The translations under genes were made by a program, and so were the position numbers. Below the pieces are notes generated by a model. That model searched no databases. It saw only the letters and a program-made list of their open reading frames with translations, and was not told the DNA's origin. DNA of 49,716 nt from assembly GCA_012728915.1 (NCBI GenBank), contig JAAYEC010000054.1, positions 1-49,716 of the forward strand, read 5' to 3'. Numbering within the stretch: position 1 is the first letter of the stretch; each line of letters starts with the position of its first letter. Shown here piece after piece: positions 4,437 through 38,160 of the stretch. The DNA is from Deltaproteobacteria bacterium (GTDB lineage: Bacteria; Desulfobacterota; Syntrophia; Syntrophales; UBA2192).

Positions 4437-4530
4437 AGGGACGTTGCTGACTAAGTAGACAAACGGCAAAGACCGGCGGGGAATGAGCAGCCCCGCACTT
4501 GCGTTTGTCTACTTAGTCAACAACGTCCCT
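4437..4530. repeat. 94-bp palindromic element with 29-bp near-perfect inverted arms
   Basis: Arms 4437-4465 and 4502-4530 are reverse complements over 29 bases with a single mismatch, which is a G-U pair if the minus strand is transcribed. The 36-base centre contains a second small hairpin (GCGGGG with CCCCGC). There is no T tract, so it is not a standard terminator. The AGGGACGTTG ends resemble those of palindromic REP/MITE-like elements that are mobilised in trans by IS200-like or REP-associated tyrosine transposases; that link is from memory of such elements and no transposase is in the window. Confidence 0.8.
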
Positions 4531-5537: not shown

Positions 5538-5582
5538 CATGTTCACCCACCTTGAGTTCCTTCATCCTGCATGGATACAATC

Positions 5583-5684
5583 AGAAGGTAAGAGGTTGAG
5601 AAGGTGAGAAGGGTAGAGAATCGGGGAGCGAGCATTGGCCGCAGGCTTATCCAACGTTCTTACCCTCTCACGTTCTTACCCTCT
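5583..5684. repeat. Octamer inverted array
   Basis: The 5' arm (5583-5620) is built of GAAGGTAA/GAAGGTGA-like 8-base units and the 3' arm (5655-5684) of TTCTTACC/CTCTCACG-like units. It lies just downstream, on the minus strand, of the fusion gene that ends at 5710. Confidence 0.75.
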
Positions 5685-8038: not shown

Positions 8039-8134
8039 GAAGGTAAGAGGTTGAGAGGGTGAGAAAGTGGAAACGCTTTTGCGTTCCCGTCCACTTCTTA
8101 CCTTCTTACCCTCTCACCTTCTTACCTTCTTGCC
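8039..8134. repeat. Octamer inverted array
   Basis: The 5' arm (8039-8070) has GAAGGTAA/GAGGTTGA-like units; the 3' arm (8091-8134) has at least five CTTACCTT/CTCACCTT-like units in regular 8-base register. It sits between the DUF1178 gene and the fusion gene, both on the minus strand. Confidence 0.8.
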
Positions 8135-13814: not shown

Positions 13815-13907
13815 ATGGCATAGGGCCAAGGGCTAAAGGTAAAGGAAGAAAATATTATTATAGCTTTTTGCTCTTTGCTCTTGCCCTTCGCCCTTTGCCT
13901 TTAGCCT
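13815..13907. repeat. Heptamer inverted array between DUF4416 gene and yicC
   Basis: 5' arm 13815-13845 (GGCATAG, GGCCAAG, GGCTAAA, GGTAAAG units) and 3' arm 13869-13907 (CTCTTTG, CCCTTCG, CCCTTTG, CCTTTAG units). The loop is AT-rich and on the minus strand contains TATAAT-like sequence that could help transcription of yicC. The stop codon of the DUF4416 gene (13901-13903) is supplied by a unit of the 3' arm. Confidence 0.75.
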
Positions 13908-15604: not shown

Positions 15605-15709
15605 AGAGGGTAAGAAGGTGGGAAGGTGAGAAGGTTGGAGAAGCGGTGCGTATTTGGCCGGGGCACGGCTTGTCCAGCCTTCTTGCCCTCTTACCCTCTC
15701 ACCTTCTCC
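15605..15709. repeat. Octamer inverted array between hldA and the decarboxylase-like gene
   Basis: 5' arm 15605-15640 (GAGGGTAA, GAAGGTGG, GAAGGTGA, GAAGGTTG units) and 3' arm 15677-15709 (CCTTCTTG, CCCTCTTA, CCCTCTCA, CCTTCTCC units), with a loop of about 36 bases. The 3' arm ends 6 bases from the stop of the upstream gene. Confidence 0.8.
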
Positions 15710-15715
15710 TTTTAC

Positions 15716-16911: not shown

Positions 16912-18429
16912 ATGGAAGACAGCGACCTCTTGAAGGTGAGGAAGGACAAGATCGAGGCCCTCACCGCTTCGGGCGTGGAAGCCTATCCCAACGACGCAAA
17001 GGTGACCCATCTCTCCGCAGAGCTCCACGCGGCCTTCGGGCAGATGGACAACGAGGCGCTCGAGAAGGTGACGGAACGTTTCGCCATTGCCGGCCGGGTG
17101 ATGGCAATCCGCAATTTCGGCAAGGGGGCCTTTATCGCCATCCAGGACCGCAAAGGGCGGATCCAGGCCTTTATCCGCAAGGACAGGCTCGGCGACGAGC
17201 TCTTTGCCCTGTTCAAGACGATCGACGTGGGCGATATCGTCCACCTCGCGGGCCGGGTCATCAAGACGCGAACGGGGGAACTCACGGTCGAGGCCGAGGG
17301 GCTGAGGCTCCTCACCAAGTGCCTGCGGCCCCTGCCGGAAAAGTGGCACGGGCTGACGGACGTGGAGATCCGCTACCGACAGCGCTACCTCGACCTGGTC
17401 GTCAACCCGAAGGTCAAGGATGTCTTCGAGGCGCGCAGCCGGATCATCCGGTTCATCCGGACGTTCCTGCACGACCGGGACTTCCTCGAGGTGGAGACGC
17501 CCATGATGCAGCCCATGGCCGGGGGGGCCATGGCCAAGCCCTTCAAGACGCACCACAACGCCCTGGGGCAGGACCTCTACCTGCGGATCGCGCCGGAGCT
17601 CTACCTCAAGCGGCTCGTCGTGGGCGGGATGGAGCGGGTCTTCGAGCTCAACCGCAATTTCCGCAACGAGGGGGTCTCGACGCTGCACAACCCCGAGTTC
17701 ACCATGATCGAATTCTACATGGCCTACGCCACGTACGAGGACCTCATGACGCTCACCGAGGAGATGATCACCTCGCTCGTCCGGGACCTCTTCGGGACCC
17801 TGAAGATCGCCTACCAGGGGACGGAGTTGGACTTCACGCCCCCCTGGCGCCGGGTATCCGTCCGGGAGGCCCTCGTCCGATACGCGGGGCTCGACCCCGC
17901 CGCCTTGGACGACCGGGGCGGGGCGCTCCGGGAGGCCGCGAAGCGCGGGCTCCTTTTCGAGGACAGGGAGCCTCTGGGCAAGATCCTGATGGCGATCTTC
18001 GACGAGACCGTGGAGGAAAAGCTCATTCAGCCCACGTTCGTGACCGGCTACCCCCTCGAGGTCTCCCCGCTGTCGCGGAAGAACACGCAAAACCCCGAGA
18101 TCGTGGACCGCTTCGAGCTTTACATCCACGGCCGGGAGATCGCCAACGCCTTCTCCGAGCTCAACGACCCGGCGGACCAGAAGAACCGCTTCCTCATGCA
18201 GCTCGAACAGCGCGAAGCCGGAGACGAGGAGGCCCACGGGATGGACGAGGACTACATCCGGGCCCTCGAGTACGGGATGCCCCCCACCGCGGGCGAGGGG
18301 ATCGGGATCGACCGGTTGGTCATGCTGCTCACCGACTCTCCGTCGATCCGCGACGTGATCCTCTTCCCCCACCTGCGCCGCCGGGAGGCGGGGGAGCAGA
18401 AGGCAGAAGGTGAGAACGTGGGAGGGTAA
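16912..18429 (+). CDS. lysS: Lysyl-tRNA synthetase (class II)
   Basis: 505 aa, equal to E. coli LysRS. An N-terminal OB fold (VAGRVMAIRNFGKGAFIAIQD) precedes the class II catalytic core: motif 1 ending in FLEVETPMMQPMAGGA, motif 2 FELNRNFRNEGVSTLHNPEFTM, and motif 3 GEGIGIDRLVMLLT. It charges tRNA-Lys. ATG 16912 gives the family start MEDSDLLKVRKDKIEAL; the longer open frame to 16687 crosses the promoter and is not coding. The last dozen residues (EQKAEGENVGG) and the TAA stop are formed by an octamer repeat array. Confidence 0.96.
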   Translation: MEDSDLLKVRKDKIEALTASGVEAYPNDAKVTHLSAELHAAFGQMDNEALEKVTERFAIAGRVMAIRNFGKGAFIAIQDRKGRIQAFIRKDRLGDELFALFKTIDVGDIVHLAGRVIKTRTGELTVEAEGLRLLTKCLRPLPEKWHGLTDVEIRYRQRYLDLVVNPKVKDVFEARSRIIRFIRTFLHDRDFLEVETPMMQPMAGGAMAKPFKTHHNALGQDLYLRIAPELYLKRLVVGGMERVFELNRNFRNEGVSTLHNPEFTMIEFYMAYATYEDLMTLTEEMITSLVRDLFGTLKIAYQGTELDFTPPWRRVSVREALVRYAGLDPAALDDRGGALREAAKRGLLFEDREPLGKILMAIFDETVEEKLIQPTFVTGYPLEVSPLSRKNTQNPEIVDRFELYIHGREIANAFSELNDPADQKNRFLMQLEQREAGDEEAHGMDEDYIRALEYGMPPTAGEGIGIDRLVMLLTDSPSIRDVILFPHLRRREAGEQKAEGENVGG

Positions 18430-18490
18430 GACGGTCGGAAGGCCCGGAAGATTTCCGACCTTCTCACCTTCTCAACCTCTTACCCTCTTC
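18398..18490. repeat. Octamer inverted array across the lysS stop codon
   Basis: 5' arm 18398-18450 (AGAAGGCAGAAGGTGAGAAC-type units) runs through the lysS stop codon; 3' arm 18455-18490 (CCTTCTCA, CCTTCTCA, ACCTCTTA, CCCTCTTC units). A separate perfect hairpin overlaps its right end. Confidence 0.8.
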
Positions 18491-18505
18491 TTTTTTGAAG
18501 AGGGT
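18482..18505 (+). terminator. Possible hairpin terminator after lysS
   Basis: ACCCTCTTC (18482-18490) and GAAGAGGGT (18497-18505) form a perfect 9-bp stem with a T6 loop. No U tract follows, so termination would be weak; it may instead cap the repeat hairpin. Confidence 0.35.
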
Positions 18506-23169: not shown

Positions 23170-23333
23170 ACGGGCTAAAGGCGAAAGGCTAAAGGCTAAA
23201 GGGAATTTGGAGAAAAAATCTGCTTCCTCAAGCCCCTTTGCCCTAAGCCCTTTGCCCCTCGCCATTTAAATCGGCGAAAGGCATAAGGGAAGAGGGAAAC
23301 GATCCACTTCCTCAAGCCCCTAAGCCCTTTGCC
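23170..23333. repeat. Two successive heptamer inverted arrays between bamA and ompH
   Basis: First hairpin: 5' arm 23170-23203 (GGCTAAA, GGCGAAA, GGCTAAA units) and 3' arm 23226-23263 (CAAGCCC, CTTTGCC, CTAAGCC units). Second: 5' arm 23272-23297 and 3' arm 23308-23333. The 3' arms of the two share the CTTCCTCAAGCCCCT block (23224-23238 and 23309-23323), suggesting duplication. They fill the gap and end at the ompH ribosome binding site. Confidence 0.8.
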
Positions 23334-31342: not shown

Positions 31343-32221
31343 ATGGAACCGACGCGCACAACGGCATTTATCTTCTTTGCCTTCCGGCTGATCCCTCTCG
31401 GGCTGCGCCGGGCGATCTTCAAGGCCGTCTTCCGCCTCTTCTACCACGCCTCGGTGAGGCAGCGCGTCATCGCCCTGCACAACCTCCGGAACGCCTTCCC
31501 GGGAAAGAGCCTCGAGGAAATCGAGGAAATCGCAAAGGGCGTCTACCGCCACCTGGCCCTCGTGATGGCCGATCTGTTCGAGATGCCCTGGATCACCCGG
31601 GAGACCCTGCACAAGTGGGCCGACGCGGAGGGGCTCGAACACGTCGAGAAGGCCCTGGCCGGAGGGAAGGGTGTTCTTTCCGTCGTCGCCCACTTCGGCC
31701 ATTGGGAGCTCATGACCGCTGCGGTGCCCCTGATGATCCGGCCTATGCAGATCGTCTACCGGCCTCTGGACAGCCCCGTCATGGACAACCTGTTGGGCTG
31801 GAGCCGGACGAAGCACGGCAACGCCCTCATCCCCAAGGGCGGCTCGGGGAAGCGGATCATCCGCCTGCTGCGCGATAATCACATCATCGGGATCCTGAGC
31901 GACCAGAACGTGGACACGCGAGAGGGCGTCTTCGTGGACTTCTTCGGCCGGCCCGCCTGCACCTCCGTCGGGACGGCCGTGCTCGCCCTGCAGTCGGGGG
32001 CTCCTGTCCTGCCGGCCTTCATGCCGCGGATGCCCGACGGGCGGTACCGGCTCATCATCCTGCCCCCCGTGGAGATCACCCGGACCGACGACTACGAATC
32101 GGATCTGCGCGTCAACACGCAGCGCTTCACGAAGGTGGTCGAGGACATGGTGAGAAAGTATCCCGACCAGTGGTTCTGGATCCACCAGCGGTGGAAGACG
32201 AAACCCTGGCAAGGGGCGTAG
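31343..32221 (+). CDS. LpxL/HtrB-family lipid A acyltransferase
   Basis: 292 aa. An N-terminal hydrophobic segment, then the catalytic HX4(D/E) motif in VVAHFGHWELM, QIVYRPLDSPVMDNLL, GILSDQNVDTREGVFVDFFG and the C-terminal PDQWFWIHQRWKT typical of Kdo-dependent lauroyl/myristoyl transferases. It adds a secondary acyl chain to lipid A. Which chain cannot be told. The stop is followed after about 10 bases by the left arm of the repeat around the four-helix-bundle gene. Confidence 0.92.
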   Translation: MEPTRTTAFIFFAFRLIPLGLRRAIFKAVFRLFYHASVRQRVIALHNLRNAFPGKSLEEIEEIAKGVYRHLALVMADLFEMPWITRETLHKWADAEGLEHVEKALAGGKGVLSVVAHFGHWELMTAAVPLMIRPMQIVYRPLDSPVMDNLLGWSRTKHGNALIPKGGSGKRIIRLLRDNHIIGILSDQNVDTREGVFVDFFGRPACTSVGTAVLALQSGAPVLPAFMPRMPDGRYRLIILPPVEITRTDDYESDLRVNTQRFTKVVEDMVRKYPDQWFWIHQRWKTKPWQGA

Positions 32222-32230
32222 CCCCTTGCC

Positions 32231-32699
32231 AGAAGGTAAGAGGGTAAGAAGGTGAGAAACGACGGGAACAAACATGGAAAGAAAGAAAACGATTCGTCAT
32301 TTCAGAGATCTGGAGGGTTACCAGCGCTCGTTTGCCTTAGCCGTCGAGATCTTCCAGATCAGCAAGAAATTTCCTTCAGAGGAACGCTACTCGCTCACGG
32401 ATCAAATCAGAAGATCGTCACGTTCTGTTTGCTCGAATCTTGCCGAGGCCTGGCGGAAAAGGCGATATGTGGCAGTTTTCAAGAACAAGTTGACAGATGT
32501 GATGCAGGAAGCATCTGAGACGCAGAGCTGGCTGGAATTCTGCCTTGCCTGCAGTTATATAGATGAGGAGCAATTTAAAAAACTGGACAATGAATATGAG
32601 GAAATCATATCCATGCTGAACTCGATGGAGAGGAACGCAGGGAAATTCTGCTACTGAATTTCCATCCTTCTCACCCTCTCACCTTCTCACCTTCTCACG
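32231..32699. repeat. Octamer inverted arrays enclosing the four-helix-bundle gene
   Basis: Left arm 32231-32258: GAAGGTAA, GAGGGTAA, GAAGGTGA. Right arm 32666-32699: CCTTCTCA, CCCTCTCA, CCTTCTCA, CCTTCTCA. The arms are mutually complementary, so the whole element could fold with the gene as its loop. The same arms elsewhere in the window enclose only 4 to 40 bases. Confidence 0.8.
32274..32657 (+). CDS. Four-helix-bundle protein (23S rRNA IVS / S23, Avd-like)
   Basis: 127 aa. HFRDLEGYQRSFALAVEIF, KKFPSEERYSLTDQIRRSSRSVCSNLAEAWRK and the C-terminal LDNEYEEIISMLNSMERN match the S23/TIGR02436 family, first seen in intervening sequences within 23S rRNA genes and related to Avd of diversity-generating retroelements. 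Members form pentameric helical barrels that bind nucleic acid. The gene is visibly lower in GC than its neighbours and uses AT-rich codons such as AAA, GAA and TAT. It interrupts the LPS operon between the acyltransferase and waaF and is bounded on both sides by octamer arrays. No reverse transcriptase or rRNA is present. Confidence 0.92.
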   Translation: MERKKTIRHFRDLEGYQRSFALAVEIFQISKKFPSEERYSLTDQIRRSSRSVCSNLAEAWRKRRYVAVFKNKLTDVMQEASETQSWLEFCLACSYIDEEQFKKLDNEYEEIISMLNSMERNAGKFCY

Positions 32700-32721
32700 T
32701 TCGTTATGCAGAGCGCAGGCC

Positions 32722-37303: not shown

Positions 37304-37389
37304 CGAAGTCAGGAAGTGAAGAAGAGCGGAAGAGCAGCAAAAAGAGTCTCTTCGCCTTCTCCTTCTGCTCTTCCTCACCTCCGCTCTTC
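37304..37389. repeat. Octamer inverted array between two GT2 genes
   Basis: 5' arm 37304-37338 (GAAGTCAG, GAAGTGAA, GAAGAGCG, GAAGAGCA) and 3' arm 37347-37389 (units of CTTCGCCT, TCTCCTTC, TGCTCTTC type). The right end encodes the last residues (EERR) and stop of the upstream minus-strand gene. It is the last array of the window. Confidence 0.75.
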
Positions 37390-38160
37390 ATGGCTTCCGT
37401 CCTTTTGGCGGTTCAGCTCGCTGAGCTTGGCGTACTTGAAGAACTTGTTCACGGCGTCGGTGACGGAAAGGACCAAGCCCTGGCTCCCGTCCAGGAACCC
37501 CAGGCGTAGCACGTAATTCTGGATGAAGGTCAGCTCGGCCCGGGCCAGCGCCCCCCAGACCGACGAGCGGCGCCCTTCCCGGAACGCCTCCTCGGCCGCG
37601 AGGGTGGAGTACCGGTCGATCTTTTTCAGGACCTCGCTCAACCGGCTCTCGGTGAAGTGCTCGATGGGGCTCTCCAGGGGAACAACCCTTCCGTCCACCT
37701 CCACGGCCTCGTGCACCGGGACATCCGTCATCCGTCCCATGCCCCTGCGGAAGAGCCGCGTGATCCGGTCGGGCCACCACCCCATGTGCCGGACCCATCG
37801 TCCCTGGAAAAAATTTTTCCGTGGAAAGCTGTACCCCTGGGCCGCCTCCCCGCCTGACGAGACGACCCCCCGGATGGCGGCCTGCGTCTCCGGGGGGATG
37901 CGCTCGTCGGCATCAAGGACGAGCACCCAGGGCTCTCGGCAGCGGTCGATAGCCGCCTGCTTCTGCCTGCCGAAGCCCTTCCAGTCCTCGATGAAGACGT
38001 CGCAGCCGAAGCCGCGCGCGATCTCGGGGGTGCCGTCATCGCTCCCCGAGTCGACCACGACGATCTGTCTCGCGAAGGAGACGCTCTCCAGGCAACCAGG
38101 AAGGTTGGCAACCTCATTCTTCGTGATGATCGCAACGGAAAGCGGGATTTTCTCATCCAT
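37375..38160 (-). CDS. Family 2 glycosyltransferase, WaaE/KdtX-like
   Basis: 261 aa. LSVAIITKNEVANLPGCLESV and IVVVDSGSDDGT open a GT-A fold; EDWKGFGRQKQAAIDR, LVLDADERIPPE, RKNFFQGRWVRHMGWWPD and VPVHEAVEV are typical of WaaE/KdtX beta-1,4-glucosyltransferases that act on LPS core heptose. Identity as core glucosyltransferase is a family inference. The C-terminal EERR and stop lie within the octamer array. Divergent from the antitoxin gene. Confidence 0.9.
   Translation of the reverse strand: MDEKIPLSVAIITKNEVANLPGCLESVSFARQIVVVDSGSDDGTPEIARGFGCDVFIEDWKGFGRQKQAAIDRCREPWVLVLDADERIPPETQAAIRGVVSSGGEAAQGYSFPRKNFFQGRWVRHMGWWPDRITRLFRRGMGRMTDVPVHEAVEVDGRVVPLESPIEHFTESRLSEVLKKIDRYSTLAAEEAFREGRRSSVWGALARAELTFIQNYVLRLGFLDGSQGLVLSVTDAVNKFFKYAKLSELNRQKDGSHEERR

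What the first reader, a model, noticed from the sequence alone, without database searches (positions are those of the whole stretch)
32231..32699. Four-helix-bundle (S23/Avd-like) gene enclosed by the octamer arms
Seen: the only lower-GC gene of the LPS operon encodes an S23-family four-helix-bundle protein and has a purine octamer array on its left and the complementary pyrimidine array on its right. Elsewhere in the window the same arms enclose only a few tens of bases. Known: S23 proteins lie inside intervening sequences of 23S rRNA, bounded by inverted repeats that fold into a stem. Inference: this is an IVS-like element in a protein operon, and the empty hairpins may be its short or decayed forms. 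That would tie an orphan protein family to an orphan repeat family.
Basis: partly seen in the sequence, partly recalled or inferred. Interest (0 to 1): 0.8.

Follow-up and report, generated by a model that had tools for sequence, protein, structure and literature searches.

The report
S23 gene in tandem-repeat stem element
A small bacterial gene of unknown function (S23, known mainly from insertions in ribosomal RNA) nearly always lies between two complementary arms made of a 7- or 8-base unit repeated four to seven times, and gene-less hairpins of the same unit are scattered through its host genome; this suggests a widespread, overlooked genetic element that links an orphan protein family to common orphan repeats.

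Summary
Confirmed and general. The S23 gene (32274-32657) between lpxL and waaF is enclosed by octamer arms (32232-32259; 32666-32702) that fold into a stem around the whole ORF. Across genomes, complementary arms flank 65 of 85 S23 genes against 8 of 123 neighbour genes, and in an out-of-sample set 60 of 69 against 1 of 59. Each locus has its own unit. Unit length (7 or 8) follows the S23 protein tree: 6 changes over 117 genes, shuffled minimum 23. Unit sequence does so only among close relatives. An S23-bearing intervening sequence inside the Azospirillum 23S rRNA has the same heptamer arms, and Coxiella's published one has tandem heptamers. Units tested form large dispersed families mainly in genomes whose S23 carries that unit. 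At the lpxL-waaF site, gene and arms have been swapped together between congeneric species, and most gene-less hairpins at shared sites differ in the same way. Best reading: an IVS-like element outside rRNA, cut out of mRNA by RNase III, whose pentameric protein recognises its repeat unit and sustains a population of cognate hairpins, rather as RAYTs do for REPINs. Architecture and coupling are shown; RNA cutting, binding and mobilisation are inferred.

The parts
32206..32232 (.). 12-bp palindrome (CTGGCAAGGGGC GTA GCCCCTTGCCAG) abutting the left arm; a different palindrome sits at this place in related species
   Evidence: sequence; forms in the RNA fold; G001/G003/G004/G006 have GGTTGTCA..TGACAACC-type palindromes there
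32232..32259 (+). left arm: octamer tandem array GAAGGTAA GAGGGTAA GAAGGTGA GAA (G-rich on the gene strand)
32274..32657 (+). S23/IVP gene, four-helix-bundle protein, 127 aa
   Evidence: AF2 pLDDT 96.2; Foldseek best matches 2gsc, 2rld, 4dwl; dN/dS 0.04 against G005
32666..32702 (-). right arm: complementary octamer array CCTTCTCA x4.6
5580..5684 (.). gene-less hairpin, GTGAGAAG type; no counterpart in G005
8039..8133 (.). gene-less hairpin, GTGAGAAG type; same site in G005 (same type) and G006 (other type)
15605..15710 (.). gene-less hairpin, GTGAGAAG type; same site in G005 (same type), G004 and G006 (other type)
18402..18491 (.). gene-less hairpin, GTGAGAAG type; same site in G005 (same type), G004 and G006 (other type)
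37305..37397 (.). gene-less hairpin of the second octamer type (GAAGTCAG GAAGTGAA GAAGAGCG GAAGAGCA)

Best explanation
The feature is one copy of a widespread element: an S23 gene between two arms built from four to seven copies of a 7- or 8-nt unit, the arms being complementary to each other. SHOWN by sequence: the architecture, its generality, the unit being private to each lineage, the unit length following the S23 protein tree, the joint swapping of gene and arms at one site, and the presence in the host genome of many gene-less hairpins of the same unit. INFERRED: (1) in the lpxL-S23-waaF transcript the arms pair into a stem of roughly 28 bp that RNase III cuts, freeing the S23 message, as in rRNA IVSs; (2) S23 forms a pentameric ring whose subunits each contact one 7/8-nt unit, which would explain the fixed unit length and the roughly five units per arm; (3) by binding cognate hairpins in trans the protein helps the element and its non-autonomous hairpins to persist, spread or be converted, much as a RAYT does for REPINs, with host enzymes doing the DNA chemistry.
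For: Arms against neighbour genes: 65/85 vs 8/123; replicate 60/69 vs 1/59. Period 7 or 8 in 121 of 125 armed genes. Unit length changes 6 times on a tree of 117 S23 proteins, shuffled minimum 23. Units per arm: median 4.9. Protein identity against arm similarity: Mantel rho 0.27, permutation maximum 0.11. rRNA IVS with the same heptamer arms; Coxiella IVS heptamers and RNase III excision (PMC4990558). Cyanobacterial plasmid S23 genes with octamer arms. Unit-by-genome counts: GTGAGAAG 14-104 in the genus, 82 in G018 and 28 in G034, both with S23 bearing such arms; TCGTAAA 91 and 183 in G094/G153 and 115 in G077, whose S23 genes it flanks; GGTTATA 28 in G111 and 11 in G140. Same-site swap of gene and arms: S23 proteins about 70-74% identical between types although lpxL is 86-92% identical. 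The RNA fold pairs the arms around the ORF. S23 dN/dS 0.03-0.11 within type. Homology between elements at different sites is confined to gene plus arms. Nearest structures are the five-chain entries 2gsc and 2rld; 2gsc is a published toroidal homopentamer (PMC4990558).
Against: Two of the four S23 genes in this genome lack complementary arms. G051 (80% complete) has GTGAGAAG hairpins but no S23 with such arms was found, and G197 has 45 copies of the TCGTAAA unit without a flanked S23 having been shown. The second octamer type also occurs in G000 and G005, whose lpxL-waaF S23 has the first type. Within gene-less hairpins the two arms are no more complementary than arms of different hairpins, indeed less (15.1 vs 18.1), which speaks against selection for perfect stems there. 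Coupling of unit length to protein lineage could be plain co-inheritance. No transposase, nuclease or RT is part of the element, so how copies move is unknown, and no target-site duplication could be defined.
Confidence: 0.6

Rival explanations
1. A purely DNA-level mobile element: the arms are terminal inverted repeats recognised as DNA or single-stranded DNA by S23 or a host recombinase, and the RNA stem is incidental.
For: Homology confined to gene plus arms at different sites; frequent decayed S23 fragments, e.g. in G024; many plasmid-borne copies; allele swap at one site.
Against: Members inside 23S rRNA, where RNA excision is established for Coxiella, make an RNA role likely; no target-site duplication or transposase was found.
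Confidence: 0.2
2. The hairpins are a REP/REPIN-like family mobilised by RAYT (Y1) transposases, and S23 is a passenger between two of them.
For: RAYT-like Y1_Tnp genes exist in six of the seven genomes of the genus; the population pattern resembles REPINs.
Against: None of the 15 Y1_Tnp loci examined carries GTGAGAAG- or GAAG-type arms within 1.5 kb, whereas all six S23 genes at the lpxL-waaF site do; S23 genes carry the arms across phyla with locus-private units; unit length follows the S23 tree.
Confidence: 0.12
3. The hairpins serve the host as terminators, mRNA 3'-end protectors or genome-architecture elements, and S23 regulates them by binding.
For: Hairpins are kept at the same intergenic sites across species; S23 is under strong purifying selection.
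Against: S23 occurs in only about half of the genomes (32/60 and 108/197); units turn over while sites stay.
Confidence: 0.12
4. S23 works as an Avd-like partner of a reverse transcriptase acting in trans (DGR-like or retron-like).
For: Fold similarity to Avd 4dwl, TM 0.76; weak Avd model hit; G013 has an S23/Avd-like hit beside an RT.
Against: No RVT_1 match in G000-G005, including the 5-contig, 100% complete G005; RT found in 14 of 32 S23-positive and 10 of 28 S23-negative genomes, counted.
Confidence: 0.04
5. Chance: the repeats are common in the genome and happen to flank the gene.
For: The unit has about 95 copies in this genome.
Against: Neighbour-gene controls and the independent replicate.
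Confidence: 0.01

Closest known systems
Intervening sequences (IVS) of 23S rRNA with S23p ORF (Coxiella, Leptospira; PMC4990558)
   Same: S23 ORF enclosed by terminal inverted repeats that form a stem; a few hundred nt long; tandem heptamers next to the start codon in Coxiella; an Azospirillum IVS seen here has complete heptamer arms.
   Different: This copy lies between two protein genes, not in rRNA. The ORF is intact and under purifying selection, whereas Coxiella S23p is reported to be decaying. It comes with a genome-wide family of gene-less hairpins.
RAYT (TnpA-REP) and REP/REPIN populations
   Same: One vertically kept gene flanked by hairpin-forming repeats, with a cognate hairpin population dispersed in intergenic DNA.
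   Different: The gene is S23, not a Y1 HUH transposase; the arms are 7/8-nt tandem units rather than short palindromes; RAYT-like genes here lack these arms.
Heptameric repeats of Xanthomonas (GGGAATC) and Nostoc (GGGGAYT) (PMC4692102)
   Same: Tandem 7-nt G-rich units, intergenic; in Xanthomonas 70-75 convergent inverted pairs per genome. X. campestris encodes the S23 protein XCC0516 (2gsc).
   Different: No S23 link is mentioned in that paper. Whether XCC0516 is flanked by GGGAATC could not be checked here.
Avd of diversity-generating retroelements
   Same: Four-helix bundle, pentameric (4dwl; pentamer from general knowledge).
   Different: No RT, template or variable repeat at this locus; far below the curated Avd cut-off (28.6 vs 80 bits).

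Membership tests
S23 / IVP protein family (TIGR02436, PF05635) | score above the curated cut-off | tested here: met
   107.6 vs 24 bits; 114.5 vs 33.8 bits
S23 / IVP protein family (TIGR02436, PF05635) | four-helix bundle fold | tested here: met
   AF2 pLDDT 96.2; TM 0.85 to 2gsc, normalised by the query
S23 / IVP protein family (TIGR02436, PF05635) | pentameric ring | not testable with these tools
   only a monomer was predicted; the homologues 2gsc and 2rld have 5 chains
23S rRNA intervening sequence | S23 ORF enclosed by inverted repeats forming a stem | tested here: met
23S rRNA intervening sequence | located inside the 23S rRNA gene | tested here: not met
   between lpxL and waaF; no Rfam hit on L004
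23S rRNA intervening sequence | excised by RNase III without religation | not testable with these tools
   needs RNA data
RAYT-REPIN system | Y1 (HUH) transposase gene associated with the repeats | tested here: not met
   no Y1 gene at this locus; 0 of 15 Y1_Tnp loci carry GTGAGAAG- or GAAG-type arms
RAYT-REPIN system | dispersed hairpins cognate to the gene's own flanking repeats | tested here: met
DGR Avd | curated Avd model score and adjacent RT | tested here: not met
   28.6 vs 80 bits; no RT in G000-G005
Insertion sequence or MITE | transposase or target-site duplication | tested here: inconclusive
   no transposase in the element; flanks too diverged between species to define a duplication

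The most novel reading that the evidence does not exclude
A pan-bacterial two-component element family in which a ring-shaped S23 protein reads a lineage-private 7/8-nt tandem unit, one unit per subunit, and rewrites or seeds cognate hairpins across the host genome without an encoded transposase or RT. rRNA IVSs would be the special case that landed in 23S rRNA, and many orphan heptamer and octamer repeats (possibly including cyanobacterial STRRs and Xanthomonas GGGAATC) would be its non-autonomous descendants.
Probability: 0.35. Interest if true: 0.93.

Novelty: new variant of a known kind. Interest (0 to 1): 0.86.

Why it matters
S23 proteins have had no known function since rRNA IVSs were described, and short heptamer or octamer repeats have been noted in bacterial genomes without an agent. 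The data here join the two as one element, show that rRNA IVSs share its architecture, and reveal a rule (unit length follows the protein lineage while unit sequence drifts) that makes protein-repeat recognition directly testable. If the mobilisation part is right, it is a mode of repeat spread with no transposase of its own.

Tried and rejected
Chance association (neighbour-gene and replicate controls). RT in trans (no RT in G000-G005). RAYT-driven hairpins (Y1_Tnp loci lack these arms). Other genes enclosed by distant arms in this genome: all the cases examined proved to be separate short hairpins. Covariation inside single hairpins: not found, rather the reverse. Target-site duplications from empty sites: flanks too diverged. 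RNA duplex energies, own against mismatched flanks, were only weakly separating. The Xanthomonas XCC0516 and Nostoc chromosomal loci could not be reached. Literature searches found no paper linking S23 genes outside rRNA to tandem-unit arms; the library lacks most subscription journals.

Full report
OBSERVATION. The reported feature is real. An S23/IVP gene (32274-32657, PF05635 E 3e-33, TIGR02436 107.6 bits) lies between an lpxL-like and a waaF-like gene in a local GC dip of 0.47. A G-rich octamer array precedes it (32232-32259) and the complementary array follows it (32666-32702). As RNA the two arrays pair around the whole ORF: on average 22 of 30 left-arm bases pair with the right arm, and a 12-bp palindrome at 32206-32232 stacks outside it.

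IT IS GENERAL. I collected S23 genes without regard to their flanks: from this genome, from 60 relatives, and from 34 named loci across Nitrospirota, Omnitrophota, Chloroflexota, Bacteroidota, Verrucomicrobiota, Planctomycetota, Acidobacteriota and others. I then aligned 350 nt upstream with the reverse complement of 350 nt downstream. Of 85 distinct genes 65 reach a score of 13; of 123 neighbouring genes in the same loci 8 do (Fisher p 7e-27). A second, independent set from the wider phylum, scored with the same threshold, gave 60 of 69 against 1 of 59 (p 1.8e-25). The arms are tandem arrays: period 7 in 88, period 8 in 33, other periods in 4 of the 125 armed genes. Median 4.9 units per arm; inner distance about 420 nt; more G than C on the inward strand in 59 of 65. 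Each locus has its own unit, and the two arms of a locus share it.

THE rRNA LINK. On Azospirillum lipoferum plasmid AZO_p2 an S23 gene lies inside a 23S rRNA gene (RF02541, 2162 bits) and its arms are heptamer arrays (GACGGAT GACAGAG GACGGAG...) on both sides. The Coxiella IVS paper reports variable numbers of GACAGAT heptamers just before the S23p start codon, 28-bp terminal repeats, and excision by RNase III (PMC4990558). Classical IVSs and the present element therefore share one architecture. Cyanobacterial plasmid relatives of the window's protein often have octamer arms such as GGGGAGCA.

PROTEIN AND UNIT ARE COUPLED. Arm similarity rises with protein identity (Mantel rho 0.27, permutation maximum 0.11): mean 5-mer cosine 0.41 at 70% identity or more, but about 0.04 below 50%. 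Unit length is far more conservative: on a tree of 117 S23 proteins it changes 6 times, while shuffled labels need at least 23 changes (5 against 14 in the first 60 rows). Sequence turns over while length stays. This suits a protein of fixed geometry, although plain co-inheritance contributes. The window protein is modelled as a four-helix bundle (pLDDT 96.2) closest to 2gsc and 2rld, then to Avd 4dwl. 2gsc and 2rld have five chains and 2gsc is a published toroidal homopentamer (PMC4990558).

COGNATE HAIRPINS. In this genome GTGAGAAGx2 has 95 matches against 11 for the reversed control, and the heptamer of a second S23 gene (L003, AGGCATC) has 82 against 6. Across 60 genomes the GTGAGAAG unit is at background (9 or fewer) in all but ten: the seven of this genus, G018 and G034, whose S23 genes carry such arms, and G051, an exception. 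A second octamer type is confined to the genus. In distant genomes the TCGTAAA and GGTTATA units likewise peak where the S23 genes carry them; G197 is an unexplained high count for TCGTAAA.

SWAPPED TOGETHER. At the same lpxL-waaF site G000 and G005 carry S23 with GTGAGAAG arms, while G001, G003, G004 and G006 carry an S23 that is about 70-74% identical to the window's, with GAAGTTAG/GAAGAGCG arms, although lpxL is 86-92% identical throughout. Between types S23 has dN 0.22 with saturated dS, against lpxL dS 0.32-0.56; within type dN/dS is 0.03-0.11. S23 synonymous sites also run faster than lpxL within type, so divergence alone is not proof, but the joint change of gene and arms is plain. At three shared intergenic sites (about 8.1, 15.6 and 18.4 kb of the window) gene-less hairpins follow the same split where the region is held; at 25.9 and 37.3 kb G000 carries the other type, so the switch is not complete.

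MOBILITY. Elements at different sites share homology confined to gene plus arms (L119/L121 in one genome; L039/L040; L051/L077). Truncated S23 copies are common in some genomes. The window's closest relatives include loci in other phyla at 65-80% identity. No RT occurs in G000-G005, and Y1 transposase loci lack these arms, so the agent of movement is unknown.

WHAT IS NOT SHOWN. RNase III cutting in this operon, binding of S23 to the unit, and any role of S23 in moving or converting hairpins are inferred. Two of four S23 genes in this genome lack complementary arms. Arms within single gene-less hairpins are less complementary than arms taken from different hairpins, so those hairpins are not under simple selection for a perfect stem. 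The literature library is incomplete, so priority cannot be claimed with certainty.

Noticed in passing
L139 and L165 (G001 C415), upstream of S23: The unit 'palindrome GGTTGTCA..TGACAACC plus left arm' is present three times in tandem, each with a different intervening stretch; G006 has two. The palindrome outside the arm seems to duplicate with it.
   Followed up: partly
window 13831-13906 and 23173-23202: A heptamer-type hairpin and a heptamer array with unit GGCTAAA, i.e. a 7-nt family alongside the octamer ones.
   Followed up: no
window 4437-4530: A 29-nt inverted repeat, 97% complementary, 36 nt apart (AGGGACGTTGCTGACTAAGTAGACAAACG), not of the tandem-unit kind.
   Followed up: no
22 GTGAGAAG hairpins of G000: Arms within a hairpin match each other less well than arms of different hairpins (mean 15.1 vs 18.1 under permutation), perhaps because perfect palindromes are unstable in DNA.
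   Followed up: partly
L144 (G006 C12): A partial tandem duplication of lpxL with a degenerate waaF start that has no S23 element between them.
   Followed up: no
G003 C153 (L164): The S23 copy at the lpxL-waaF site has an in-frame TGA yet the genome keeps both hairpin families.
   Followed up: no
G013 C34:107373-108797: A weak S23/Avd hit lies beside a reverse transcriptase, probably a true diversity-generating retroelement.
   Followed up: no
PMC10910872, figure legend: '23S rRNA IVP' is named in a figure legend of a CRISPR discovery survey; the short tandem arms around S23 genes might have been picked up as repeat arrays there.
   Followed up: no
L062 (G051 C95) and L002 (G000 C75): S23 genes whose flanking repeats contain small GC-rich hairpins (e.g. 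GCGGCCTGCGGC, GGCAGCGAAGCTGCC) instead of complementary arms.
   Followed up: no
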